Positions 16,065-49,740 of a stretch of DNA of 64,000 nucleotides are shown here, piece by piece (position 1 is the stretch's first letter; each line of letters opens with the position of its first letter). The stretch comes from Isoetes taiwanensis. Its lineage: Eukaryota; Streptophyta; Lycopodiopsida; Isoetales; Isoetaceae. A program made the translations under genes and the position numbers. The DNA lies in the NCBI GenBank assembly GCA_021234155.1, contig JAJEKV010000062.1:7394425-7458424 (forward strand), read 5' to 3'. The notes under the pieces are model-generated. The model saw only the letters and a program-made list of their open reading frames with translations. It made no database searches and was not told the origin of the DNA.

Positions 16065-16868
16065 GTTCTTTTTGCCATACAGCGTTGTACATATGGTGGA
16101 TTTGCTCTATGTACCAGGCTCGCATTCCATGCTTCCTCTTGCCACATTCATCAAAGATTATGTGAATTTAATGGCCATGAAATACCCATTCTGGAACCTG
16201 ACTAAAGGCTCTGATCATTTCTACCTTTCCTGCCATGATTGGGTGAGTAATATATTACACACACAAACTGATTCTGATTCTGAATTTATTGAATAACCGA
16301 AACTGATTTACAGGGCCCTGCAATGGCAAGAGATCATCCAGAACTGAGAAAAAATGCAGTAAAAGTAGTGTGCAATGCAGATCTAACAGAGGAATTTGTG
16401 CTAGGAAAAGATGTATCAGTGCAAGAAATATATCTGCATGAATTGAAGTTACCAAAAAGACTGGGAGGGCCAGGAGGAAGGAAGAGGCCGTATCTTGCAT
16501 TTTTTGCAGGGCAGATGCATGGAAGGATGAGGCCAGTTTTGATCAAATACTGGAAAGATAAGGATTCAGACATGCAAATTTATGAAGTATTGTCTGAGAA
16601 GGGGAGGAGAAAAACTGAAGCATATGTGAACCACATGAAATCTAGCAAGTTCTGCATATGTGCCATGGGATATGAGGTTAACAGCCCTAGACTGGTTGAA
16701 TCTATATACTATGACTGTGTTCCAGTTATCATTGCAGACCATTTTGTTCTCCCCTTTAGCAATGTTTTGAACTGGGACATGTTTTCCATTACCGTTGAGG
16801 AGAAAGATATACCCAATTTGAAGGAGATTTTAACTCGAGATGCACTTTCCATTTCTTACAACATTTAA
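16065..16868 (+). pseudogene. Exostosin-like GT47 glycosyltransferase, 3' fragment
   Basis: This continues the exon cut at 4476: FFLPYSVVHMV, YVPGSHSM, then YPFWN, DHFYLSCHDW. A 71-bp intron (16243-16313, GTGAGT...CAG) leads to an exon starting GPAMARDHPEL at 16314. That exon holds FFAGQMHGRMRP, SSKFCICAMGYEVNSPRLVE, YYDCVPVIIADHFVLPF, NVLNWDMFSI and EKDIPNLKEIL, the conserved exostosin C-terminal block. Stop at 16866-16868 after SISYNI, earlier than the usual family C-terminus. The family transfers sugars in the Golgi. With the upstream half disrupted this copy is most likely non-functional. Confidence 0.85.
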
Positions 16869-19139: not shown

Positions 19140-20192
19140 TGCCATAAGCTTAAGACCTAGCATAAAAGATAGTACCCCCAAGCCTGCGGGTATGATAAAA
19201 TACTGAGTCACTATCTGGGAGACCATTGATAAGCCCTTGTTGTATGAAATGAGTACCTCCGGGCACTTGATCATAAAATATCTCTGCATATATCTTTGGC
19301 ACAGAAGTCAAGAAAGTCCTCGGGGCCACACAGCACGTTGGCCATAGTGTATGAATGGATTGACTACTGTTCTGTTTGACAGGGGCTTCGGACTGGACAA
19401 ATTCAAATCAAACATCTTGCCAAGGTCGGTGTACATTAAAGAGGATCTACTATCTGCATCATAAATTCTCTTAGCACCATGTTGAATAGAAAACAGATAA
19501 CCTATGCTCTTTCTCACATATGAATTATATGGCATGAACTTCTGGATTCTATAACCAAGTGTTGCCTGTTGTTCAGTAGAGAGGAAGATGGCTCCTTTTA
19601 CTGCCCAGTCCTTTGGGGCTTTTATCTCCCCAATTGCCAGCACCTGCCACTCATGCATGTTTGCAACCATGGCCTTGACAGTATCTGTTGGTGCCTCATT
19701 CACAGAAATGACAACCCAATTTTCAGCTTTCACCAAAGAATGCCTGCCATTGTCCTCAAGTCTTTTCACTTCTTTAAAATTCAGATCTGGATATGGTACT
19801 TTCTTCTTTCTAAACCTTGGGTCGTTGCATGTCACATTGTCCCTCCTTCTTTCAAGCAGAACCAACAAAATTATGCGAACCAACAAAATTATGCTTAAAC
19901 CCACAGCAGCAACAAATAAGAACTTGGCTCTGCTGTGCCTAAGAACCCCATATACTGAATTTGAAACCTTACCAACCAACAATCTCCCAGTCCCGTTCTG
20001 CTTCGTCTCCTGTTGGTTCTCAAATTTGTGCTGTTCTTCAGATCCACCAACCGCATCATATTCTACTCCATTACCCAAATGCCGATCTCGAGATTGTATT
20101 TCCATAGCTGATTTGAAGGCGAGACAGGAAAATGCAGAGATACATGTAACAATTACCCAGACTACTTTATCAACAAGAGAATAGTGGTACAC
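19140..20192 (-). pseudogene. STELLO-like glycosyltransferase, N-terminal half
   Basis: A 294-codon open frame (20192-19308) has a polar N-terminal region, a hydrophobic segment (FLFVAAVGLSIILLVRIILL, about residues 90-110), then the DUF288 block: NWVVISVNEAP, WQVLAIGEIKAPKDWAVKGA, IFLSTEQQATLGYRIQKFMP, SYVRKSIGYLFSIQHGAKRI, YDAD, NRTVVNPFIHYGQRAVWPRG. After a frame change near 19310 the similarity continues to about 19140 with GGTHFIQQGLINGLPDSDSV, FYHTRR. The family is a type II Golgi protein of cellulose synthesis. The frameshift, the missing middle and the position inside a Helitron mark a captured pseudogene. Confidence 0.75.
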
Positions 20193-20199
20193 AAAGAGA

Positions 20200-22150
20200 G
20201 AGTGCTTCCAGAAAATGAGAGTTCAAATCTGTGTTCCTTCATAGCCAAATTGCATTTATATGTAATATGGCCTAATGCAGGCTCCTGTGGTTTTTTGAGC
20301 CTACAAAGTGAAATGAATTTGCTGTGACCCATTCTTTTAGGTACATAACATGAATAGTTCTATAAATATGAGAAAGCCAGTAAGATTGGCAAGTTAGCCC
20401 TCCCCATTAGAGTTCAAGGCATAAAACCCAGATAAATGATCATGGCCAAGTTTCTGAAGATGCCAAAGCCCTCCATCTCGGACCCAAAAAAAATAAGGGC
20501 ACTAGGAGAACATGAAGATAATAGTAGGAAAGAAAAATGTTCCCATACATCAGTAAGGAAGTCGACCATTTTCTGTAACAAATGAAGTGCAGGCCTTGAT
20601 AACTCAGCCAATCACAAAGCAAGACTATGGATTTCAACTTACAGCTAGAGGAATAGGTTGCAGAAAATGCTGATTTGTTGAGAGGAGATCCTCATAGTTT
20701 GCGCTCCAACTAATGGAAGACAAACTCTTAGATACACAAAGAGCAAACACAGAGCTCAAGGCAATCACAAGGCTAAAAAGGAAAAAAGACTGCTAACAAG
20801 CAGAAACAAATGGGTTGAGAAAAGTAGAACATGCCAGAACAATCGACACAACCCTTCAAAACAATTAACTATGCAAGCAAATATAGAAAAGATGAATAAA
20901 GTGCATTTTCATGATTTGGAAAAAGCAAAAGCACGAGGCTTGAATTCTAAAAACCTATTTAAGCAAAGTGCACAACAATGCAGTATAGTTGTTGTGACAA
21001 ACCTTAACACAGGCTCACAACGTTCTTCTAAACGATTTCTTGGGCGGTTGCCAACCCCACAAATCTATACCTGACAGTGACAGTGATCCAATCGTGTGAG
21101 AAAGCATTTGAGTGTAATGGGCCTGCAATCAAATTCAATCAACGCTCTTGTAAGAGAAAGTCTTGCAAGTCAGTTTTTGCAAGCAATTGAATTCAACCTT
21201 TCCCCTGCTATCTAACATCACCCAAGATGCTTGCGGAATCAGGCTATAGGGCCTCAAGCAATTTACAGTCATGTCTGTAACAGAGTCACAAAAAGATTTC
21301 GTTGCCTTTTGCAAATCAATCGGTCCTTGAATTCGGGGTCTAGACCTATTTGTATATATCCAAAACTACAGCTTGCATGTAATCCCATGCAAACCCGACT
21401 TCCCCCAGGTGGATTGCATGTCTGGGCATGCATTGATTAGAGGTGAATCTATTCTCTGCCACCCAGCACAGATGTATCCTGAAGAGCCTCAAAAAGATGT
21501 GTGAAAAGCAGACTTGTGGATTTCATGGTCGGGCCTTTTAAGCTAAATTTCAACCTGCATCTGGCCATCGCCGATCAACACAACTACAAAATCCAAACCC
21601 TAAGCGGGTTGCTTACAAAAGTAACACATACTTCAACTTACGAAATGAATCAGAGAGACATTTGAAGCCATAAAATGGAAAGGAAGAAAAACATTTCTAT
21701 TACCTTAAAAAGAAGATATCCAGGGCTTGCCGGATGCGCTTGTCTGCTCTGCCATAGAGGAAATACGATTGTCTGGCGATGCCACATGATGCAAATCCAA
21801 TGCATCATGATTTAAAGATGATTTAAAGAATCCGGCTCCTCCTTTTTTGCCAAAACAAAAAACAATATGAATGTTTCGTAATGTTCCGTATGAAGGAAAG
21901 AAGAAGTGGAAGAGCCAGCCGCCATTGGAAAAGGGAAGGAACGCACCACATCCGGAGGCCCAACTGCTCATAGAAAAAAAGAAAACGCATCTCGACCATC
22001 TATTCAATCCAATGGCCAAAAATGCGCACAAACTATCATAAAACGCCATTATTATACATATCTGACGGTCCAAAATGAAAGCTGTGGGAAAAGAAATTGA
22101 CGGCCGAGATGCTCTGCACAAACTACATTTTGCTTTTATTACTATATATA
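20200..22150. other. No gene recognised; 5' part of Helitron A1
   Basis: Mostly AT-rich sequence with small open frames of no recognised family. It may include promoter or 5' UTR sequence of the captured STELLO gene, but nothing shows this directly. Confidence 0.4.
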
Positions 22151-31458: not shown

Positions 31459-34207
31459 GAGGCAAGGTGTGACTTCTATTCATACTTAAAGATTACATAA
31501 ATAGGGAATATACCATAGAAGGTATATCAGTAGAAAAAAAAGCACATTCCTAATACTAGGAATAGTGCCAAAAAAATCTGATCGTGGTCAGATAAAGAGT
31601 ACTTATACAAGTATCGGCATCATAAACAGTTTAAGTACTTCAGAACAAGGTTCTCACTGTGCATCAATTAGATCCTGCATGGTCAGATCCTGCACCCTGT
31701 TCCTGCCAAATATATTCAGTAGCTCATCAAGCTACTGAATGGGCAGGGGATGGGGAGTTATTCTGTATGGCTCTCCAAATCATCTTAGCAGCCAGAGCTT
31801 GTGCCTGTAGAAATAAATCTTTGCATCCCATCCCACCTTCTTTCTTGGGCTTAGTTAGATCATTCCATGCAACTTTATGGACCCCCTGCCAGATGAATTT
31901 CCTGATAACTGCTTCGATCTTACCATATGATGCTTTATCCCCAATTACAGCCGAGGAGAAGTATACATGAGTGCTGCCTATAACAACATTTGCTATCTGA
32001 ATTCTGCCTGCTAAGGACAGAGAGGAGGAGTATGATCCCAGCTTCTTTTTGATCCTGGTTACAATTGGATCCCATAGACCTTTCAAAGTGGAGTTTAGTG
32101 CCAAAGGAATACCTAATATGACCGTACCTGCATCTTTACTTAACACTTTAATCCCTTGCATGGTTGCCTCCTCAGAATCCAATATAATAGCACTTTTATT
32201 TTTGTTCAAACAAACTCCAGAAACCAGTCCAAATCTCTCCATTGCTGCAAGAAATTTTTGGAGGCTTTCTCCTTCTTCAAAAACACAAAAGTGTCATCAG
32301 CATATTGCATTATGGAAAAAGTACCTTCCCCTTTTGGTAGTTGCAGTGATTGGATATCTCCTTTGTCTTGCATTTGTAGTACTAGTTTTGTAAGTACTTC
32401 TGCAACAATCAGAAAAAGGTAAGGGGCTAAAGGGCAGCCTTGCCTTACCCCTCTCCTACACTGGAATTTGTCAGTAGTTGCACCATTGATAATTAAAGCT
32501 GAGGTTGGTGTCGAGTTGAATCCCAAGACCTTTTGATACACCTTTCCTGATAGCCCCAGATGGGCCATAGCTTTTTCCAGAAACTGCCAACTGATAGTAT
32601 CATATGCTCTTTTGAAGTCCAATTTGAGCAGTAGGCAATCTTGCTTGGACAACTTATTCCAATGTATTCCTTCAGCAGCCCCAATATAATTGTCAAGAAT
32701 ATGCCTTTGAGGGAGGAAGGCAGATTGACATGGATTTATAACATTTATAAGGCAAGCCTTTAATCTGTTAGCAAGGATCTTGGCTAATACCTTATAAGTG
32801 GTATTTGTTAAAGATATTGGCCTCCAGTTTCCTATATTGATTGGACACCCCACTTTAGGAATCAAAGTGATTTGACCAGCATTAATTGATGGATGTAGAA
32901 ACCTGGCTTGCCATGCTCCCTGAATAAACTTTATGAAATCATCCTTCATGATTTTCCAGAACTCCACATAGAATTCTGGTTGAAATCCATCTGGACCCGG
33001 GCTCTTACCATGTGCCATTGACCTTAAAGTCTCAGCTATCTCCTTCTCTCCTGGAGTTTTCAACATGTCTTTATCTTCAATTTCTGGCCCCTTGGGCAGT
33101 TCCTTGAAGAAGTCCTCAATTACTTTATTCTCTACTTCATATTTGCTGAAAAGGGCTTGGTACTCTTTGTGGAAATAATTCTGAATCTCTAATTGGGAAT
33201 CCAGTGATTTCCCTTGCTCATCCATGACCTCTACTATTCCATTATTCAATATACGACTCTTGGCTGTCCTGAAGAAAAAGGCTGATCCAGCATCATCCAT
33301 CTCATTCAAGTATTTACATTTGCTTCTAATTGCCAAACTTTTGGCTTCTTCCTCTTCAATCTTCTTGACCTTGATCTCCAATTCTGTCTCCTTTTGTTGC
33401 CACATACTATTATTTTTATCCTGGAATAGAAATTGTCTGGTTTCCCTCATGGCCTCATAAACTTCCTGCTTCTCTTTTTTCTTTTTCCTATTCCACTCCT
33501 TTCCCCAAACTTTAGCCCAATCTTTTATTTTCCTGAGATTCTGCACAAAGGCATTCATTGATTCAGTGAGGGTGACCCTGGGGAGCTGATTATAGAAGAT
33601 TGTGAAGTCTTCACAAAACTTTCTGTTATTTAGCATCCCTGTGTTAAATTTGAAAGGTGTATTGAATCCTCCCTTTTGTGGAGTGGCCATACTTTCTAGA
33701 AACTGGGGGAAATGGTCTGAGATAGAGTTACCAACATCAGAAGAGGTAATCATGTTATCCCACTCTTCTAGACCATTATTGCTTAAATAAAACCTGTCCA
33801 GCAGACAAAAGGTTCTATGCTCCCCTTTTCTTTTGTTACTCCAAGAGTATTGATGAGAGGAGGATGGGGGAATATATATGAAGTTTTCCATCAATCTGTC
33901 CCATGCCTTTCTTTCTCCTTTTGTCATATTTAATTGTTTACCAAGTTTTTGGTCCCAACTTGGTGTATTGTTGAAATCTCCAGCCAAGAGCCAATTGTTG
34001 TTTTGGTGTGCTTGTAACCACTTATCCATTTGTGTCCATTGTTGCTCTCTTTCTGCTGGATCAGTTGAGGCATATACATTTATAATTCCAATTGCATTCT
34101 TCCCTTTCTTTAGAATGGCAACAGTCCATCTTCCACCACTATCTTTATACTTTTCCTCACATTGGAAGCCTCTCCACATCATACTAATATTCCAAATGCA
34201 TTCCAAA
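31426..34207 (-). mobile_element. 5'-truncated L1-type LINE
   Basis: Minus-strand non-LTR retrotransposon with a 32-base poly(A) tail (poly-T at 31426-31457). The sequence begins inside the endonuclease domain at about 34207. No target duplication could be identified. It sits in an exon of the SCAPER-like fragment. The 3' zinc-finger region usual in plant L1 ORF2 seems absent. Confidence 0.85.
31727..34207 (-). pseudogene. LINE ORF2 endonuclease/reverse transcriptase, frameshifted
   Basis: 34207-32206 encodes the C-terminal part of an AP-type endonuclease (GDFNN and SDHFP motifs) and then a reverse transcriptase: GPDGFQPEFY, NIGNWRPISLTNTTYKVLAK, LKLDFKRAYDTISW, RRGVRQGCPLAPYLFLI and the catalytic YADD (about 32296-32307). 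Just after FVFLKK the frame is lost. A different frame (GESLQKFLAAMERFG and onward, 32270-31727) continues the domain, so there is a one-base frameshift near 32278. The product would copy LINE RNA by target-primed reverse transcription. 5' truncation plus frameshift make it inactive. Confidence 0.85.
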
Positions 34208-34376
34208 GGCAAAGCATAGTGATGGAAGCTATTGTTGAGGAATCTGAGGAGGACTTGCAGCAGGTAGATATTCCTACCGAGTTGAAGATGGGGCCCAATG
34301 ATTCGCAGGAACTAGAGTCTGACCCCTCAGTCCTCAAGCGTTCTGGAACTCCTGTTAATAAAGATACAACCAGATG
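34208..34376 (+). pseudogene. SCAPER-like gene, C-terminal exon, part 2
   Basis: Directly after the LINE the frame reads QSIVMEAIVEESEEDLQQVD and ends NKDTTR-stop (34374-34376). Its acidic C-terminal tail character and its place right after the interrupted exon suggest that it completes the last exon of the SCAPER-like fragment. Assignment rests mainly on position. Confidence 0.45.
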
Positions 34377-41849: not shown

Positions 41850-42170
41850 ATAACTATTGTTTAGGCATTGAGATATGGCAACAGACAGGAGGCATTGTTA
41901 TTTCACAAAAAAAGTACATTAAAGACTTACTACAACAGTTCAACATGCAGAATTGCAGGTCAGTTGCTTCTCCATTTGAGCCGGGCCTCAAACTTGATCT
42001 CAATCTTGATGAGACTGAATGGAATAATACCTTGTATCGTAGCTTTGTTGGTGCGCTCATCTATTTGCAAACCAGATATTGCTTTTGCAGCTGCGCTTCT
42101 TAGTCGCTTTATGGCCCTGCCTAGGAAATCTCATTGGCTTGCTGCCAAACGCGTTTTGGCCTACTTAAAA
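41850..42170 (+). pseudogene. Ty1/copia reverse transcriptase fragment (piece 1 of 4)
   Basis: Reads LGIEIWQQTGGIVISQKKYI, KDLLQQFNMQNCRSVASPFE, then WNNTLYRSFVGALIYLQ and, after a frame change near 42065, RPDIAFAAALLSRFMALPRK, SHWLAAKRVLAYLK. This is the C-terminal end of a copia reverse transcriptase. It is cut after the YLK codons by a MULE; the coding resumes as KGTLDEG at 49706. The upstream part of the element (gag, protease, integrase, 5' LTR) is not found. Confidence 0.85.
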
Positions 42171-42910
42171 CGGTGCTACTATCGGCTCCCTAGATTAACT
42201 AGGGGAGCCAATGGGATTCGCTTGAGCGAATCCCTGGGATTCGCTTGAGCGAATCATGGGGATTCGCTCAGGCGAATCCTCTCGAATCCTCTAGTGACGT
42301 GGCGTCCACGTCCGCCCTCAAAGGGGGATTCGCTTAAGCGAATCCCCAACCCATAGTTAAGAAAAAACGTGTGAAGAAATCCCGCTGGATGTGACGTGCT
42401 AAAAAATTCTTGGGGGGGATTCCCTTGAGCGAATCCCCCTCCCCTGCATTAATGATGTACTTTTTTTCACATGTGTGGGGGGGGGATTCGCTCAAGGGAA
42501 TCCCCCCAATATAATTAAATGTACTTTTTTTCACATGTGTGGGGGGTATGTACTTTTTTTTTGACATGTGGGGGGGGGATTCAAGGGGGAATCCCCCAAC
42601 AATATTGCGCGTTGGGTTCCTCCCCCATGTCTCATTTTTTACAATTTTCTTGTACCTCCTAATTTGTAACACGGGATATGCTTTGAGCGCAAGCCCCCAT
42701 GTGGATCTCGCCAAGGGGGACAAGGGGGCCAGATAAGGACAAGGGGGACAAGGGGGCCAAACGAGTAAGTAGAACGATTCGCTTGAATCGTTCTACCACC
42801 GTTGCAAGGCCGAAGATGTTCTATATAGAACACCTTCGGCCTGATAGAGAAACATCCATTGCAGGCTCTCGGCTACAAGAGGAACCGCCTTTGAAGAACA
42901 CAAAGGTAAT
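42171..42910 (+). repeat. MULE left terminal inverted repeat
   Basis: About 740 bp, inverted relative to 48989-49705. The outer part holds several copies of the palindrome GATTCGCTTGAGCGAATC and relatives (42224, 42239, 42267, 42329), plus GTGACGTGGCGTCCACGTCC. G-runs and TGTACTTTTTTTCACATGTG follow, and the inner end carries a TATA-containing palindrome and a splice donor-like CACAAAGGTAAT. Confidence 0.9.
42808..42841. promoter_or_regulatory. Palindromic TATA region in left MULE TIR
   Basis: A 34-bp dyad centred on TTCTATATAGAA with GGCCGAAG/CTTCGGCC ends. It contains TATATA and lies in the inner part of the TIR, upstream of the plus-strand gene and of a donor-like AAAG|GTAAT at 42901-42910. 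Proposed core promoter; inference from position and motif. Confidence 0.5.
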
Positions 42911-43445
42911 TGTTTTGCATCCATCATATTTTGACTATGATCCCTCCCTCCTCGTCCACCCTTCTTTCAATATTTCAAAACATATTAGAACACTCCTATC
43001 TTGCCATGTTGCCTCAATATGCTAGAACAGTCCTTTCATGTGGCGCATTGCTAGAGGAAATCGCCTGTAACTAATGCTAAAGGATAGTCAAGCTTTTTTG
43101 AGGATTCATTTTGTCCCACCCAATATATAGGCTAGTTTGCGTCAACAATCAACCCTAAAAAGTTTCAAATCAGCTTTCTTGAAAATTCTAAGCCACCACA
43201 TTTTGATGTTTGATAATATATATTGCATTATATACACGCACCAAGTACATAATTAAGTGATCCATTTGTGACATTGCAAATGGCAAATCAAATGCTATTA
43301 TGGGCACCACTTTGCGACGAGTAAAATTAAATTTGTTCACACAATATTATTCAGTTTCATGCTCAAAGCATCCCTCAGGCATTGGCCACAAGTTGAAGAT
43401 CAGATCAGTGAATGAGAACCCACGTGGGCAAAAGGGCTTTGCAAA
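42911..43445. other. Non-coding, presumed 5' intron of the plus-strand MULE gene
   Basis: AT-rich sequence between the TIR-borne donor-like site and the acceptor TTGCAG at 43715-43720. No coding recognised. Confidence 0.4.
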
Positions 43446-43454
43446 GTGCTCGTG

Positions 43455-43637
43455 AGGATTCTCGTGACGTGGCGTCCACGTCCGCGCCCAAAGGGGGGAT
43501 TCACTTAAGCGAATCCTCAATCCATAGTTAAAAAAAACGTGTGAAGAAATCCAGCATTTAATGCACTGGATTTGGCATGCTTAAAAAATCTTGGGGGAAT
43601 TCCCTTAAAAAATCTTGGGGGGATTCCCTTGAGCCCA
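43455..43637 (+). repeat. Internal partial third copy of the MULE TIR
   Basis: Repeats, in direct orientation to the left TIR, the segment with GTGACGTGGCGTCCACGTCC, GGATTCACTTAAGCGAATCC, AACGTGTGAAGAAATCC and CTTGGGGGGATTCCCTTGAG. Confidence 0.85.
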
Positions 43638-43730
43638 ACAAGATAGAGAAACAGTGATTATGGTTAATTCTTTTGTTTAGTGAGATTATACCCTAATCTA
43701 GTACCTGTTTGTGGTTGCAGTTTGCTGCAA

Positions 43731-45019
43731 ATGTCTTCTTCAGAGCCAGTGCCGGTTGCACACATGGACGAGCGACCATTGCCCTTTGACTTAGAAAGCG
43801 GGGCCCAGCATCCAGCTCGCATTGGAAGTATCATATCCTGGTATGCCCAAAACCACTTATCTTTTGCAGAACAATACGTTGTTTGCACTAACTTTTCCAC
43901 ATGTTTTATTGCAGGGAGTACCATGGCATTTGGTGCCTCGTTAGAAGGGTGATTCAAGTGGAAACCGGTCGTGCCCCTTCGGTTGCACAGAGATGGATCT
44001 GCACTGCGGAGGGGTGCACACACTTTCTTGACAGAGTGCGCCGGGATCCTGGATTCCCTGGTCTGACATGGGATGGGGCCTGGGGACACCACCAGAGCCA
44101 CCATCGAGATCACTGGTGGCCCGATGACAGGCACTCCGGTCCTCGTGCCCAGGCACCGAGAAATTCAACCAGAGTCGCAGCTGACCGCGAGAAGGCAGCG
44201 CGAAGACGACAAGATCCACAGATGGCCGCCCGCATGTTGGCGAACGTAGCCAGACACAGAGATGCTGCGAGGCAGGGTGCTACCACAATGCGTTTGCAAC
44301 ATATCCTTACACCCGAGGCGGCACTGGAAGCCTTTCCAGAGGGGCCAGATGCGGTCTTGCACGATGTGAGCACCCAGCACAGGCAAGAGCGCCAGAGGCT
44401 GCAACCATTTCATGAAGGACGCATCAGAGTGCGGTTAGGTACCGCAGATATGGTTGGGCCCGATGATTGGGAAGCACATCAGCTTCTCAATGATTGGGCG
44501 ATTGCGCAGAGATTGGCGGGTCATATGCCAACAGAGCAGGAGTTACTAGCTGAGCTCATCCGAATACGGGGTTCTCACCGAGAGGAGGGTCCAGACCCAT
44601 CTTCACGTTCAACTTCAAGAACTACTATGATCCCCACTCCATCTGATCCCTCTTTTGCAGCGGAGCAGGATAGACTGCATGCCGATATGGCCGAATTTGG
44701 TGCGAGCAGTAGGGACACTAGGTCTCAGATGAGTGGCCCGACTCCAACAGATCCAGAGTCTCCTCTCCCCATGGCATCTGGTCTCCCGGGGGTGGATCCG
44801 ACTCCACCAGACCTATATTTGGCCACCCCTCCTTCTATATGTCGTCTCCGCGGTGATACGGTTGACCCTCCCAGGGGGCGTCAGGTCTTTGATGACATTG
44901 TGAGCACTGCCATGGCTGGCACTGGCATGGCACATACCTTGACCTCGCCATTTCCACCTGATTGTTCTTCTTGTACCACTTTGGTGAGTTTGACAGACAC
45001 ACCATTTGGAGCTACTTAG
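43731..45019 (+). CDS. MULE second gene, 404-aa protein of unknown function (mudrB position)
   Basis: Two coding exons: 43731-43840 and 43915-45019, with a 74-bp GT-AG intron (GTATGC...TTGCAG). They join in frame (Ile-Ser-Trp-Glu-Tyr-His-Gly). The start ATG follows an acceptor-like TTGCAG by ten bases, so a non-coding first exon in the TIR is likely. The protein is about 404 aa: a Trp/Cys-containing N-terminal part (about residues 35-100), an Arg/Ala/Gln-rich helical middle (REKAARRRQDPQMAARMLAN), and a Pro/Ser/Thr/Asp-rich C-terminal third. I recognise no domain. By analogy with mudrB it may assist insertion, but it does not visibly resemble MURB. No stop or frameshift breaks it. Confidence 0.7.
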
Positions 45020-45467
45020 TGTGTGTGTGGCATGCACATTGGATATATCATGCGGCAGCTTGTCCGATGCATATGGCAAACCCAGCTGGCCGCTATTATA
45101 CCCATCACAAGGGACTGGTACACTGCAGGTGATGTGCGCCAGTTTAGGAGTGAGTGGCCTGTGGCCTGTACTAGTTGCTCTCTTGTATTGTAGAGTGTTT
45201 TGGTACCACCAGAGGATTAGTGGCCTCTGGTAGTGCAGTTTGTATGCTACCGAACCATATTATATTGCCGCTCATTGTGATTTCATAGGGTGATCTCAAT
45301 ACAATGAAAACATATTTAATTGAAAAAGTATTGATGCGAAGAAACAGTCAATAGTGTCGCATCTGCCATTTCTGAATGCACAATAAATATTTTAGACTTA
45401 TATCCACATATGATTAGCAAATGCGTTGACAAGTATGAAGTTAATGGACCTAATTAAGGATGATGCC
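45020..45467. other. Intergenic region between the convergent MULE genes
   Basis: The 3' ends of both genes face each other here. An AATAAA-type signal context occurs near 45385 (CACAATAAATATT). No other structure seen. Confidence 0.5.
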
Positions 45468-48400
45468 CTATTGGAGCTCTGTGCGACTCCTTGACCTTCC
45501 GCGAGGCCGTGGGGGGTGCTCCCTCGCTGCACCATGCGATGCATGCCACGGATGAACTCCTGCGCGAGCATGTTGTTGTCTATCGTATCCACCATGGAAT
45601 ATTTGCATGGGAGGGCCAGCTGCATCTCTGTGATACCGGATCTGTCTACGGACCTTTGTCACCATTTCACGCACATCTGCTGGAGCAAGATCACCTACAT
45701 TCTGCAAACTCACTTGTACTGTTTGATGTTCAGCCATGAGCAATGCATCCCATTCCTGTAGCAGTGGTATTAGAACATCCATGTCATTTGCTGGTGCAGG
45801 CGGGCGTGGAGGCATGGGTGGAATGAATTGTCGATTGGGATATAACTCATTGTACAACATGGGGTGACGGCTTGCAATGAAGTAGTCTCCTGCGATGAGG
45901 TGCTTGCACACAGCAAGAGGAGATGGGCAATCGCAGTATCGCATTCTCATATGTTGCGTGTATCTCAGTCCCTCTGTCGTCTGGCTAGCCATTGACAACC
46001 TTAGGTCATTCGCATCGTCTAGTAGGATGGTGTTAGGGTGTTCGTCCAATAAATGAATAAGTGATTGAGCACCTGCATGTCTCTTTGGATATGAACGTGT
46101 ACTATAACGTCCAAACTCAGCTGAAGAGAAGACAACTAGTAAGACTGTGTCATCACACAAATGGGCATATTACACGTAATATACATACCAAGACTCCATC
46201 TTTCTAGGCAGCGAGTCAAAATTGTGCCTCCAGCTGGCAAAGTCCCATCTGGAAAGCCTATGAGATGAGACACGAGCGTGTACATCCTTATATTAACTTT
46301 GCATTGCAAGGTTTGGGTCTTCAATACCCTCCAGTGAGATTCGACGTAATTTGTGGTGTCAATGATTCCGTGGTTGAACATTCGTTTATGTCTTTGCCAT
46401 TTACCATCCCATGTTGCCCCATTGAGCCAGTTGTTATTCAAGTACCTAAATCATATTACATCCTGGTTATTGCAAATGCCCGATTCACACAATTCATAGT
46501 TGTGCACTCACCTTTGTATGACTGGGTTATGTCCGTAATTCTGCTGAAATTCTGCCAATCGAAGATGGTATGATTGGGCCATAGGCTCGGTCATCAATTT
46601 TGATAGCTTCAACGCCACATCTCTCTTTAGCACCTCCCCGTTCAGACGTGGCAGTAGATATCTTTGCCATGCACGCTTCGCATGGAACCAACATGCAAGA
46701 ACATTGCCTGCAATCTGATTTTACAAGCACGATTGTTGTTTTCATCCAGATACACAAAAAAAGCACTTTCATTATACCTGCTCACCATCTTCCCAACAAT
46801 ATTGGTCGGCTTCGACGACCTCAGTGATGGCACGTCTCTCACAACCGTCCATGTCGATCGTGATTGACCTCGGCCTAACTGTACCCATGCGTTCAAATAC
46901 AAGTCGGAGCGCTATCTTCAAGGCATGACGCTGGTGCCCCTCATCGGCCTCTACACTGCAGAGCATGTAGAACACTGGGAACCCCACTCCCCCAGCGATG
47001 GGTACAATGGCTCCGTACAATGGAAACTTCCATAAGTTTGTGCCAAACGTAGAATCCATGGCCCAACCACTACCACCGCTCCACCTTATAGCAGCCTCCA
47101 ACATCTTATCGTCTTGGATGACTAAGATCCATGGACGCATCATCGGGTCCAGGGCATTAGGATTCCATGGCTGGTGGAAAATTACCTTTCCAGATGCTTT
47201 CCAATCGTCTATGCCATTCTCAAGACTCTCCCAATCCGATCCGAGACTGCCTCCTATGAGGTACTATGTGATAAGATTGTAGGAGTGAAATATTTTGGAA
47301 AAGGAAATTATATGATATTTTTTGAAAGAAAAAAGTTGCCATATTGAACCGAAAAAAACAATATCAATAGTTAATTATCCTAATATTGACTATGAATTAT
47401 GAGAAAGCTAAAACAATAGTTGCTCTATGGATGAATAATTTTCAAGGGCGCTTACCGAGAATCCTCTGCCGATACGCTAGTTGCCAAACATCCTCCTGTG
47501 CCATCGTGAAGCGGTAAATGATGCGCTCAATTGGACTTACTGTCATACGTATTTCTGGTCCTCGTGCTCTTGCAAAGTCCCACACTGCACGAGTCATCCC
47601 GATACTCCGAAGCTCTTGTGCAGCAGCCCCTAGTAGTTCAGGATGCACGGGCATTGACCAGTCCTCTGCATTTGTGAAAGGGTCATGTCCTGTATGTTCC
47701 GTGCGTATGTATATTCGTGCAACAGCAGATGATGCATTGTTTCCATGTGGTTTCACAGTCCGCAACCGAAACAAACATCCTCTACGGTGCGACCTTCTGA
47801 TCTGCCTATCCCCGCGAGTCCCTCTTCTACGTGGCTGCCTCCATCTGTGGCAGGCGAAGTCATCCACGATCTCACCTGTTACACCCCTCACACGTTGGTG
47901 AGAATGGACCAATCGAACACGATAAGCCATTTGAAGCTCAACTACCCTTTGTTCGAGGCTGCCCATGGTGCTCTCCTCATAGTAATTGAAGTCAACATCT
48001 TTCATGATTTGGCTGCTTTTGCATGTGCACACTTCCATGCACTGCATTATGTACTCTTGCGGAATGCCATGGGTGTGCACACCAATTTCCCATTCCTCTG
48101 AAATTTTTTGGGAGGTGGCAGTAGTCCGCCGATGGATGGTTCCATCTAGGTGTGCCACGGCAAGTAGCTGGCTCCATAGCTCCACATAAGGCACTAACTT
48201 GTGAGGGCCAGTTATGCGTCTATACAACCAACCGCCAGAGTCTGCATCGCATGCAAGTTCATCACAGTATACAGCCCACCGTTGCATTAGGCGGATATGG
48301 CTCTCGACATGGGCCCGGCCGCTTCTTTGCGGCATCGGGGGTAAGTGGGGATCAGCAGCACTTACTTCCGATGGCATGGGAACATAGTGTTCCATTAAGC

Positions 48401-48695
48401 ACAATCTCATCAACCCATATGCAGATTGGTTGAATGCATAACCATTCCCAGACCTGGCACGAAGCCATTGCACTGGGTCCGGGTAAAGAGCGGCCAATTC
48501 CTGTGCAAGTTGCTGGGGATCTTGGTTGGAAATCATACTCGAGGTAACATGGGCACTTGGACTAGCAACATTGGAAATATTTTCCTCGGTTTCCTCCTCC
48601 GATGTGCTGCAGCCCACGGCATCATGAACGTCATACTCACTGTCATTTTCATCTGAAATCTCACTAATTGAATCATCGGTGTCTGCCTCTGCCAT
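45468..48695 (-). CDS. MULE transposase (MuDR/mudrA-like), 937 aa, five exons
   Basis: Exons 48695-47456, 47253-46786, 46707-46512, 46445-46189 and 46120-45468; all introns are GT-AG and the phases agree, giving one frame of 937 codons. The N-terminal third is acidic, then a long region typical of MULE proteins. The DDE catalytic core follows: D480 in GWAMDSTFGTN, D547/D549 in ITIDMDGCERRA, then ACWFHAKRAW, and E670 in TTNYVESHWRVLK. A SWIM zinc finger (C783, C785, C792, H794 in YCDCPSPLAVCKHL) follows, and then an Arg/Pro-rich tail. It would cut and join at the element's TIRs. Start chosen at the first ATG after the acceptor-like AAATAG; a donor-like site in the right TIR suggests a non-coding 5' exon. 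Confidence 0.9.
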
Positions 48696-48719
48696 GGTCT
48701 TGCACTCTATTTGGAAGGC

Positions 48720-48988
48720 AAATAAAAACTAATGCGCAATGGGCGAGTTCACGAGTAAAATAAATGGAAGAAGCATGACCCTGGTACTTTAACGTTGGCT
48801 GACGCACTAGTGTTCGGACACTTGCCTGTTTGAGTGAACCTACAAGACAACGAGTACATTAAATACAATACATTGACGTAATAGAACACGATGCTATGAT
48901 GCTCTTCGACAGGAGAACTAAAGGGAGCACTCTGTAAAACAGAAAATGATCACCAGCAAAATGAGAAAACAGCTTATTACATTACATG
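48720..48988. other. Presumed 5' intron of the transposase gene
   Basis: Non-coding sequence between the right TIR and the transposase start codon. The minus strand runs from GGTAATC at the TIR edge to an acceptor-like ...CAAATAG just before the start. Confidence 0.45.
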
Positions 48989-49705
48989 ATTACCTTTGTG
49001 TTCTTCAAAGGCGATTCCTCTTGTAGCCGAGAGCTTGCAATGAATGTTTCTCTATCAGGCCGAAGGTGTTCTATATAGAACATCTTCGGCCTTGCCCTCC
49101 TTGTAAAACGATTCGCTCAAGCGAATCGTTCTACTTACTCGTTTGGCCCCCTTGTCCCCCTTGTCCTCATCTGGCCCCCTTGTCCCCCTTGGCGAGATCC
49201 TCACGAGACCTACATGGGGGCATGCGCTCAAAGCATATCCCGTGTTACAAATTAGGAGGTACAAGAAAATTGTAAAAAACGAGACATGGGGGGAGGAACC
49301 CAACGCGTGCAATATTGTTGGGGGGATTCCCTTGAGCGAATCCTCCCCCACATGTCAAAAAAAGTACATGCCCCCACACATGTGAAAAAAGTACATTTAA
49401 TTATATTGGGGGATTCCCTTGAGCAAATCCCCACACATGTGAAAAAAAGTACATCATTAATGCAGGGGAGGGGGATTCGCTCAAGGGAATCCCCCCCAAG
49501 AATTTTTTAGCACGTCACATCCAGCGGGATTTCTTCACACGTTTTTTCTTAACTATGGGTTGGGGATTCGCTTAAGCGAATCCCCCTTTGGGGGCGGACG
49601 TGGACGCCACGTCACGAGAGGATTCGCCTGAGCGAATCCCCACGATTCGCTCAAGCGAATCCCCTTGGCTCCTCTAGTCAATTTAGGGAGCCAATAAAGT
49701 GGGCG
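48989..49705 (-). repeat. MULE right terminal inverted repeat
   Basis: Inverted copy of 42171-42910, somewhat shorter through small deletions. It contains the same GATTCGCTTGAGCGAATC-type palindromes, the GTGGACGCCACGTCACGAG stretch and, at its inner end, the 34-bp palindrome with TATATA. Confidence 0.9.
49058..49091. promoter_or_regulatory. Palindromic TATA region in right MULE TIR
   Basis: Same dyad as in the left TIR (centre TTCTATATAGAA, 49069-49080). It would serve the minus-strand transposase gene; the minus strand has CACAAAG|GTAAT shortly downstream. Role inferred. Confidence 0.5.
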
Positions 49706-49740
49706 TACTTAAAAGGTACATTAGATGAAGGCATTTTTAA
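49706..49740 (+). pseudogene. Ty1/copia fragment (piece 2 of 4)
   Basis: Reads YLKGTLDEGIFK directly after the MULE, including the 9-bp duplication TACTTAAAA, and joins piece 1. It is then cut by the fold-back insertion. GTLDEG is typical of the copia segment linking reverse transcriptase and RNase H. Confidence 0.75.

What the first reader, a model, noticed from the sequence alone, without database searches (positions are those of the whole stretch)
42171..49705. Apparently intact autonomous MuDR-like element with convergent transposase and second gene
The element has a 9-bp target duplication, long TIRs, a 937-aa transposase that splices in phase from five exons with D/D/E and SWIM motifs, and an unbroken 404-aa second gene converging on it. 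Nearly everything else here is decayed, so this element may be young or active. Convergent two-gene MULEs like MuDR are rare outside a few lineages.
Basis: partly seen in the sequence, partly recalled or inferred. Interest (0 to 1): 0.85.

Follow-up and report, generated by a model that had tools for sequence, protein, structure and literature searches.

The report
Two-gene jumping element, one gene broken
This is a plant "jumping gene" of the Mutator kind whose transposase gene still reads through but whose second gene, which in related copies ends in a protease-like domain and faces the transposase, has been cut short here; the family is of interest because it pairs a SUMO-protease-like gene with a Mutator element in what appears to be a quillwort.

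Summary
The element is real: TACTTAAAA flanks 42171-49705, four fetched empty sites lack it, and the inverted repeats match at 668 of 692 ungapped positions. The 937-aa, five-exon transposase reads through with catalytic and SWIM residues. The second gene does not: against sister copies the "unbroken 404-aa gene" has a 46-bp frameshifting and a ~1.0-kb deletion. In relatives it spans five exons (~735 aa) with a zinc-finger-like N-terminus and a divergent ULP1/C48-protease-like C-terminus; here only the last fragment remains. So this is not a complete two-gene copy; "young/active" is unproven (nearest compared copy ~98% identical).

The family is the interesting part. In this genome (size matches Isoetes taiwanensis; inferred), 50 of 50 neighbouring gene pairs converge, both genes show purifying selection and co-diverge (r=0.88), and distantly related MULEs also carry convergent C48 genes (8 of 8 pairs found). 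The C48 assignment is probable, not proven. Convergent and ULP1-bearing MULEs are known in angiosperms: a new variant of a known kind.

The parts
42162..42170 (.). left target-site duplication TACTTAAAA
   Evidence: 4 of 4 fetched empty-site copies
49706..49714 (.). right target-site duplication TACTTAAAA
42171..42911 (+). left terminal inverted repeat; holds TATA-like TTCTATATAGAAC and a candidate 5'-UTR splice donor at its inner end (both inferred from sequence only)
48989..49705 (-). right terminal inverted repeat, 668 of 692 ungapped positions identical to the left
42215..42504 (.). six GATTCGCTYRAGCGAATC-like palindromes in the left TIR (core starts 42216, 42239, 42262, 42328, 42419, 42486)
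   Evidence: genome-wide distribution of the strict 19-mer
49110..49662 (.). palindromes of the same kind in the right TIR: five on the + strand pattern (core starts 49111, 49326, 49475, 49566, 49645), six when the reverse strand is read
   Evidence: five; six
43460..43634 (+). internal partial repeat of TIR sequence upstream of gene 2; similar stretches are matched near some other copies
43731..43840 (+). gene 2 exon 1
   Evidence: homologous exon in relatives
43915..45025 (+). gene 2 exon 2, broken: zinc-finger-like N-terminal region present, 46-bp frameshifting deletion at 44964|44965, 3' part missing from about 45025 on
45026..45193 (+). remnant of gene 2 last exon (Cys-Gly of the C48-like motif and tail; His, Asp, Gln lost)
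47456..48695 (-). transposase exon 1 (with a zinc-finger-like region; label recalled, no Pfam hit)
46786..47253 (-). transposase exon 2 (MULE/RNase-H-like; D480, D547)
46512..46707 (-). transposase exon 3 (CWFH motif)
46189..46445 (-). transposase exon 4 (E670)
45468..46120 (-). transposase exon 5 (SWIM C783/C785/C792/H794) and stop
   Evidence: SWIM Pfam hit E 0.0018, under cut-off, in sister L025

Best explanation
A Mutator-like (MULE) cut-and-paste DNA transposon inserted into a copia-like retrotransposon. Shown: ends, TSD, TIRs, a readable five-exon DDE/SWIM transposase, and a convergent second gene that is broken in this copy. Shown for the family: a longer second gene (about 735 aa by model) with a conserved N-terminal C/C/H/H zinc-finger-like segment and a C-terminal domain with the H, D, Q-x5-C-G residues of ULP1/C48 cysteine proteases; dN/dS below 1 in both genes; co-divergence of the two genes. 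Inferred: each TIR is the promoter of one gene; the transposase binds the TIRs (candidate sites: palindromes largely confined to this family), cuts and reinserts; the second protein is a helper whose ULP1-like domain acts on SUMO-type modified host chromatin or silencing proteins, or on the transposition complex. The window copy could make transposase but only a truncated second protein, so it would need another copy for that function if it is required.
For: TSD, empty site, TIRs. Transposase model, MULE E 2e-4 for exon 2, sister L025 ZSWIM1-3_RNaseH-like E 7.6e-7 above cut-off, SWIM E 0.0018; D480 21 of 22, D547 20 of 22, E670 18 of 19 rows. Gene 2 model from relatives. C48: 8 of 8 sister-subfamily pieces scanned hit PF02902 and no other family, E 0.0005-0.075 (two, six). 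A joint profile of both subfamilies against a five-sequence Isoetes C48 alignment gives E 1.5e-5, Prob 79.7, with H, D, Q, C aligned; 0 of 100 column-shuffled controls score as high. Convergence 50 of 50 neighbouring pairs within 40 kb, the window's own included, 37 of them within 8 kb. dN/dS of the window against L008-L024: 0.18-0.33 in transposase exon 1 (17 rows), 0.10-0.27 in gene 2 exon 2 (14 rows with a value). Co-divergence r 0.884, 0 of 5000 permutations. Lesions.
Against: The window's own subfamily gives no Pfam C48 hit and no PDB sequence hit. Each subfamily's profile alone is weak (E 0.15-0.29; 0.005-0.034), and 1-2 of 100 shuffled controls reach it, so the protease assignment rests on the joint profile, the sister hits and the motif. 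None of the 8 sister hits passes the 20.7-bit cut-off; the best (20.4 bits, L050) comes from a piece in which I joined and trimmed the two exons by hand. No structure was predicted. Active-site letters are not universal among degraded copies (H 11 of 13, D 10 of 14, Q 8 of 13, C 12 of 14 rows with a letter; some misses are wrong-frame readings). In the aligned copies the acceptors of introns 3 and 4 are AG in only 8 and 9 of 21 rows, so the starts of exons 4 and 5 are provisional. Against its nearest copy the window's gene 2 shows no constraint (dN 0.026, dS 0.016). Many dS values exceed 1, near saturation. Catalysis, substrate, DNA binding and promoters were not tested.
Confidence: 0.8

Rival explanations
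1. One reading: an intact autonomous two-gene element whose real second gene is the 404-aa ORF, and the extra exons in other copies are added sequence.
For: The ORF is open from ATG to stop in the window, and sister-subfamily copy L025 also lacks the 3' exons.
Against: Past 44964 the 404-aa reading leaves the frame of the conserved FFLYHFGEFDRHTIWSYLVCV segment, which relatives read in frame. The nearest copy compared (C1034, 2.4% away in gene 2) still has the H and D (L003) and Q and C (L004) letters, with stops elsewhere. Between lineages the part just after the break (first 148-198 codons of the lost region) has dN/dS 0.15-0.25 in L002, L003 and L007 against L008, L010, L012, L013 and L015. 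The window keeps an orphan 3' fragment of the last exon.
Confidence: 0.08
2. Gene 2 is not a protease but a DNA-binding or structural helper whose C-terminus resembles C48 by chance, closer in role to mudrB or a plant-mobile-domain ORF.
For: No Pfam or PDB hit in the window's own subfamily; the N-terminal zinc-finger-like segment is well conserved across subfamilies; single-subfamily profiles barely beat shuffles.
Against: H, D and Q-x5-CG in the same order in two subfamilies whose gene 2 exon 2 is only 29-43% identical; C48 is the only family hit for all 8 sister pieces scanned; joint profile E 1.5e-5 with 0 of 100 shuffles as high.
Confidence: 0.2
3. The C48 gene is a host gene fragment captured recently and independently by these elements (transduplication) without function.
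For: ULP capture by MULEs is described as having occurred independently several times, or as frequent loss, in PMC2528002 section 10.
Against: Gene 2 occurs, convergent, in copies whose transposase exon 1 is only about 39-42% identical (L025-L027), with dN/dS below 1 and co-divergence with the transposase. The joint profile scores better against the two MULE-borne C48 rows alone (E 7.5e-5) than against the single host ULP row (E 0.025), though the row numbers differ.
Confidence: 0.1

Closest known systems
KI/KIU-MULEs of Arabidopsis, and ULP1-bearing MULEs of melon, rice and grapevine (passages of PMC13317346, section 10 of PMC2528002)
   Same: MULE carrying a ULP1/C48-like domain, in KI-MULEs in reverse orientation to the transposase; also reported in TIR-MULEs and in distantly related MULE groups
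   Different: KI-MULEs are non-TIR; here long TIRs with repeated palindromes, a host that appears to be a lycophyte, a transposase below the Pfam MULE cut-off, and a ULP1-like domain that Pfam misses in the window's subfamily
MuDR of maize (mostly recalled; passage in PMC6446971)
   Same: Two genes, convergent (recalled), 9-bp TSD, long TIRs
   Different: No DBD_Tnp_Mut hit; second protein is ULP1-like in relatives; link to mudrB not testable here
Plant MULE groups with antisense PMD ORFs (MUDR, MUDRAVI2, MDR and others; PMC6446971 Table 1)
   Same: A second ORF antisense to the transposase
   Different: No plant-mobile-domain hit in gene 2
VANDAL VANC anti-silencing genes (passages of PMC5735166 and PMC13317346, abstract of PMC10398659)
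   Same: MULE-borne accessory gene, some with a ULP1 domain; short motifs repeated in non-coding DNA of the element
   Different: No sequence link tested; binding or demethylation unknown; motifs here are palindromes in the TIRs

Membership tests
Mutator-like elements (MULE) | target duplication of about 9 bp | tested here: met
   9 bp, with empty sites; also in L035
Mutator-like elements (MULE) | long terminal inverted repeats | tested here: met
   741/717 bp, 668 of 692 ungapped positions identical
Mutator-like elements (MULE) | MULE DDE transposase domain | tested here: inconclusive
   PF10551 E 2e-4 for exon 2, 22.2 bits, under the 27.6-bit cut-off; sister L025 PF21056 E 7.6e-7 over cut-off; D, D, E conserved
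Mutator-like elements (MULE) | C-terminal SWIM zinc-finger residues C-x-C...C-x-H | tested here: met
   C-x-C-x6-C-x-H present, conserved in 16-17 of 18 rows; but the Pfam SWIM hit is in sister L025 and under cut-off, 18.2 against 19.6 bits
MuDR proper | MURA-type DNA-binding domain (DBD_Tnp_Mut) | tested here: not met
   no hit at E up to 1 for the whole protein
MuDR proper | mudrB-like second gene | not testable with these tools
   no mudrB sequence or model at hand
ULP1-bearing MULE (KI/KIU type) | ULP1/C48 domain in an accessory gene | tested here: inconclusive
   motif and profile support for the family, best Pfam 20.4 bits against a 20.7-bit cut-off; the window copy itself has lost the domain core
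ULP1-bearing MULE (KI/KIU type) | accessory gene antisense to the transposase | tested here: met
   50 of 50 neighbouring pairs convergent; the other 50 merged transposase places had no listed partner within 40 kb
Peptidase C48 (ULP1) | His, Asp, Gln, Cys in order with Q-x5-C-G (motif recalled; also seen in the host ULP) | tested here: met
   met in relatives: H 11 of 13, D 10 of 14, Q 8 of 13, C 12 of 14 rows, and in the sister subfamily; not met in the window copy, which keeps only Cys
Peptidase C48 (ULP1) | C48 fold | not tested
   the structure predictor's stated inputs do not clearly cover spliced products of these loci, so none was submitted
VANC anti-silencing protein | binds motifs repeated in the element and causes loss of methylation | not testable with these tools
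   only the motif side was seen: palindrome 89 forward and 90 reverse hits genome-wide against 0 for the reversed control; 40 of the 53 sites listed lie near family hits

The most novel reading that the evidence does not exclude
An old MULE lineage in lycophytes carries its own sequence-specific accessory protein: a zinc-finger N-terminus that recognises the TIR palindromes of the family, plus a ULP1-like protease that strips SUMO-type marks to open silenced copies. This would be a counterpart of VANC/KIU that is either older than the flowering plants or independently evolved, with the same type of partner gene kept by two distant MULE lineages in one genome.
Probability: 0.15. Interest if true: 0.75.

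Novelty: new variant of a known kind. Interest (0 to 1): 0.45.

Why it matters
[quoted passage not shown] One can then ask whether the pairing is ancient or repeatedly invented, which PMC2528002 section 10 leaves open for angiosperms (repeated capture or frequent loss), and why a SUMO-protease-like protein is useful to a DNA transposon. The many diverged but paired copies in one genome give a good data set. The single copy that was flagged matters less than its family, and its second gene is broken.

Tried and rejected
Pfam on the 404-aa ORF gave nothing, which prompted the comparison of copies. phmmer against the PDB with the C-terminal domain gave 0 hits. Apparent strong divergence of gene 2 in L017, L018, L019 and L022 shrank on a nucleotide alignment and is attributed mostly to frame-mixed alignments of degraded copies; the first co-divergence figure (r 0.678, 295 of 300 pairs of 25 loci) was replaced by the nucleotide one (r 0.884, 210 pairs of 21 loci; L001, L020, L023 and L025-L027 were not in it). 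Three 1.1-kb TIR-bearing derivatives (L034-L036) looked like recent copies but align through their flanks, so they are duplicated segments, not independent insertions. The idea that the second gene resembles a PMD protein was not supported by any hit; mudrB was not testable. A transposase phylogeny against MuDR, Jittery and Hop was not made because no such labelled sequences were at hand. Structure prediction was considered and left out. Dating in years was left out for lack of a substitution rate.
Full report
What was checked. The window is part of G000 (contig C1070), a genome of 1,658,258,908 bases in 1110 contigs. Those figures match the Isoetes taiwanensis assembly (1658.30 Mb, 204 scaffolds plus 909 unscaffolded contigs; passages of PMC8566536). 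I therefore infer a quillwort host. This rests on size and record number only.

Ends and insertion. TACTTAAAA lies at 42162-42170 and again at 49706-49714. The joined flanks read as a copia-like frame (...KRVLAYLKGTLDEGIF...; the copia label is recalled from the motif). The left flank has 27 matches in the genome. I fetched four of the 27, and all four run through the site with one 9-mer (one with a single base change in it) and no element. The two terminal repeats align over 741 and 717 bp with 668 matches, 24 mismatches and 74 gap columns. Independent support for the termini comes from L035, a 1.1-kb derivative with the same ends and a perfect 9-bp duplication; its relative L034 has 8 of 9.

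Transposase. Pfam gives only weak support in this copy: MULE at E 0.0018 for the protein and 0.0002 for exon 2, both under the cut-off. A sister subfamily (L025, exon 1 42% identical) reaches E 7.6e-7 for ZSWIM1-3_RNaseH-like, above cut-off, and SWIM E 0.0018, under cut-off. Across the aligned copies D480 is kept in 21 of 22 rows, D547 in 20 of 22, E670 in 18 of 19, and the SWIM residues in 16-17 of 18. In exons 2-4 and the first 110 residues of exon 5 the window protein departs from a >=90% residue at one column of those with at least six rows (I for L). It is therefore a plausible working transposase of a divergent MULE branch.

Second gene. The 404-aa ORF has no Pfam hit. Searching the genome with its main exon gave 124 matches, and with transposase exon 1 gave 105; both are lower bounds, since 111 of 800 and 101 of 1075 first-look candidates were scored. 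After merging, 100 transposase and 101 gene-2 places remain. 50 of the 100 transposase places, the window's own included, have a gene-2 place on the same contig within 40 kb; all 50 converge, and 37 of these lie within 8 kb. A few pairs share one gene-2 place, so they are not fully independent. The other 50 transposase places had no listed partner within 40 kb.

Twenty-seven stretches were fetched. In relatives the gene continues well past the point where the window ORF stops. In L008 I model five exons of 112, 1416, 189, 189 and 312 nt, a protein of about 735 aa. On the alignment of 21 rows the four donors are GT in 19, 17, 18 and 17 rows and the first two acceptors AG in 18 and 18, but the last two acceptors are AG in only 8 and 9, so the starts of exons 4 and 5 are provisional. 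Each of the seven copies whose reading I looked at in full (L008-L014) has at least one stop or frame break.

Lesions of the window copy. Aligned with L003, its closest relative, the window lacks 46 bp at 44964|44965. Aligned with L005 it lacks about 1.0 kb at about 45024-45027, with a few shared bases at the junction. The profile of the C-terminal part (355 positions) finds only positions 6-44 and 282-353 in the window. The His and Asp exons are missing; a Cys-Gly fragment remains, cut off from the frame. The assembly used Nanopore reads polished with Nanopore and Illumina reads (PMC8566536 passage), so single-base indels in repeats may be errors; the 46-bp and 1-kb gaps are less likely to be.

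What the C-terminal domain is. It carries HWMLVAL, WWYFDN and Q-x5-CG. Alone, this subfamily has no Pfam or PDB hit and weak profile similarity to C48. The sister subfamily has GHWYLLVHI, MDSLPG and PAQ-x5-CG. All eight sister pieces that I scanned hit Peptidase_C48 and nothing else, with E from 0.0005 to 0.075, none over the 20.7-bit cut-off (two, six); these pieces are two exons joined by hand. A joint profile of both subfamilies against a five-sequence Isoetes C48 alignment, taken on the columns of a MULE-borne row, gives E 1.5e-5 and probability 79.7, with H, D, Q and C aligned; on the columns of the host ULP row it gives E 0.003. In a control with the C48 columns shuffled, 0 of 100 shuffles reach the joint score in either case, while 1-2 of 100 reach the score of each subfamily alone. 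With the two MULE-borne rows only E is 7.5e-5, with the single host row only 0.025. The host ULP is SENP8-like. These profiles are small, so the values are indicative. I conclude that it is a divergent ULP1-like domain, probability about 0.8.

Constraint and co-inheritance. Window against L008-L024: dN/dS 0.18-0.33 for transposase exon 1 (17 rows) and 0.10-0.27 for gene 2 exon 2 (14 rows with a value; dS 1.0-1.85, near saturation). For the lost region, L002, L003 and L007 against L008, L010, L012, L013 and L015 give 0.15-0.25, but over the first 148-198 codons only, before the His. Among L008, L010, L012, L013 and L015 themselves, over 301-355 codons, it is 0.24-0.38, and 0.65 for the close pair L012-L015. 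Medians over all pairs with dS 0.1-1.2 are 0.33 (244 pairs), 0.38 (171) and 0.44 (90, protease region), with maxima 1.2, 0.95 and 0.74; these include degraded and partly mis-framed copies. Against its nearest copy L003 the window's gene 2 has dN 0.026 and dS 0.016, that is, no sign of constraint since they parted. Nucleotide distances of the two genes correlate at r 0.884 over 210 pairs of 21 loci, 0 of 5000 permutations as high; two main clusters of copies contribute much of this.

Terminal palindromes. GGATTCGCTYRAGCGAATC has 89 forward and 90 reverse hits genome-wide and 0 in the reversed control. The answer listed only the first places; of the 53 distinct sites in that list, 24 lie within 10 kb of a family gene hit, 16 within 2 kb of a TIR hit only, and 13 near neither. 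In the window every copy is inside the element. They are candidate binding sites for the transposase or for gene 2; no binding was tested.

A second MULE group. Comparing 150 PF10551 places with 150 of the 151 PF02902 places (both capped lists) gives 8 pairs within 12 kb; all 8 converge, with 0.33 pairs expected by chance. I read the C48 sequence of three of the eight (L029-L031): they have the canonical motif pieces. So classical MULEs in this genome also have convergent C48 genes.

Known background. PMC6446971 (passages and section 6) lists antisense PMD ORFs in most of the MUDR group and in some others, so a convergent layout is not rare. PMC2528002 (passages and section 10) and PMC13317346 (passages) describe ULP1 domains in MULEs of Arabidopsis, melon, rice and grapevine. 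PMC5735166 (passages) and PMC10398659 (abstract) describe VANC proteins, which bind short repeated motifs and remove silencing marks. Six searches listed no lycophyte MULE with a ULP1 gene among the titles and abstract starts shown; the listings were capped, and most subscription papers are not in that library.

Activity. The nearest copy compared differs by 1.6% in transposase exon 1 and 2.4% in gene 2; the best other exon-1 match in the genome is 97% at protein level. Recent movement is possible but not shown.

Verdict. The element and its transposase are as described, the second gene is broken, and the family is a new, apparently lycophyte, variant of ULP1-bearing, convergent MULEs.

Noticed in passing
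G000 C997, C1078, C932, C1031, C959, C1048, C996, C908; L029-L031: Classical MULEs (PF10551 over cut-off) with a PF02902 match 1.6-10.6 kb downstream in opposite orientation, 8 of 8 pairs within 12 kb.
   Followed up: partly
L034, L035, L036: 1.1-kb non-autonomous derivatives with both TIRs; they lie in duplicated segments, flanks included.
   Followed up: partly
window 43460-43634: Internal partial copy of TIR sequence in the presumed 5' intron of gene 2; the TIR probe also finds such inner matches in C1034, C907 and C941 copies.
   Followed up: no
window 16293-16865 (+) and 19311-20222 (-): ORFs that look (recalled, no search made) like exostosin-type glycosyltransferase pieces, possibly host genes.
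   Followed up: no
window 32209-34311 (-): 701-aa open frame that looks (recalled, no search made) like a LINE retroelement ORF.
   Followed up: no
L025 (C1101): Sister-subfamily copy with long open transposase exons whose second gene also lacks the 3' exons, seemingly a separate loss of the protease part.
   Followed up: partly
33 listed places with a 91-aa frame matching PF02902: A multi-copy repeat that carries a C48 fragment; its element was not identified.
   Followed up: no
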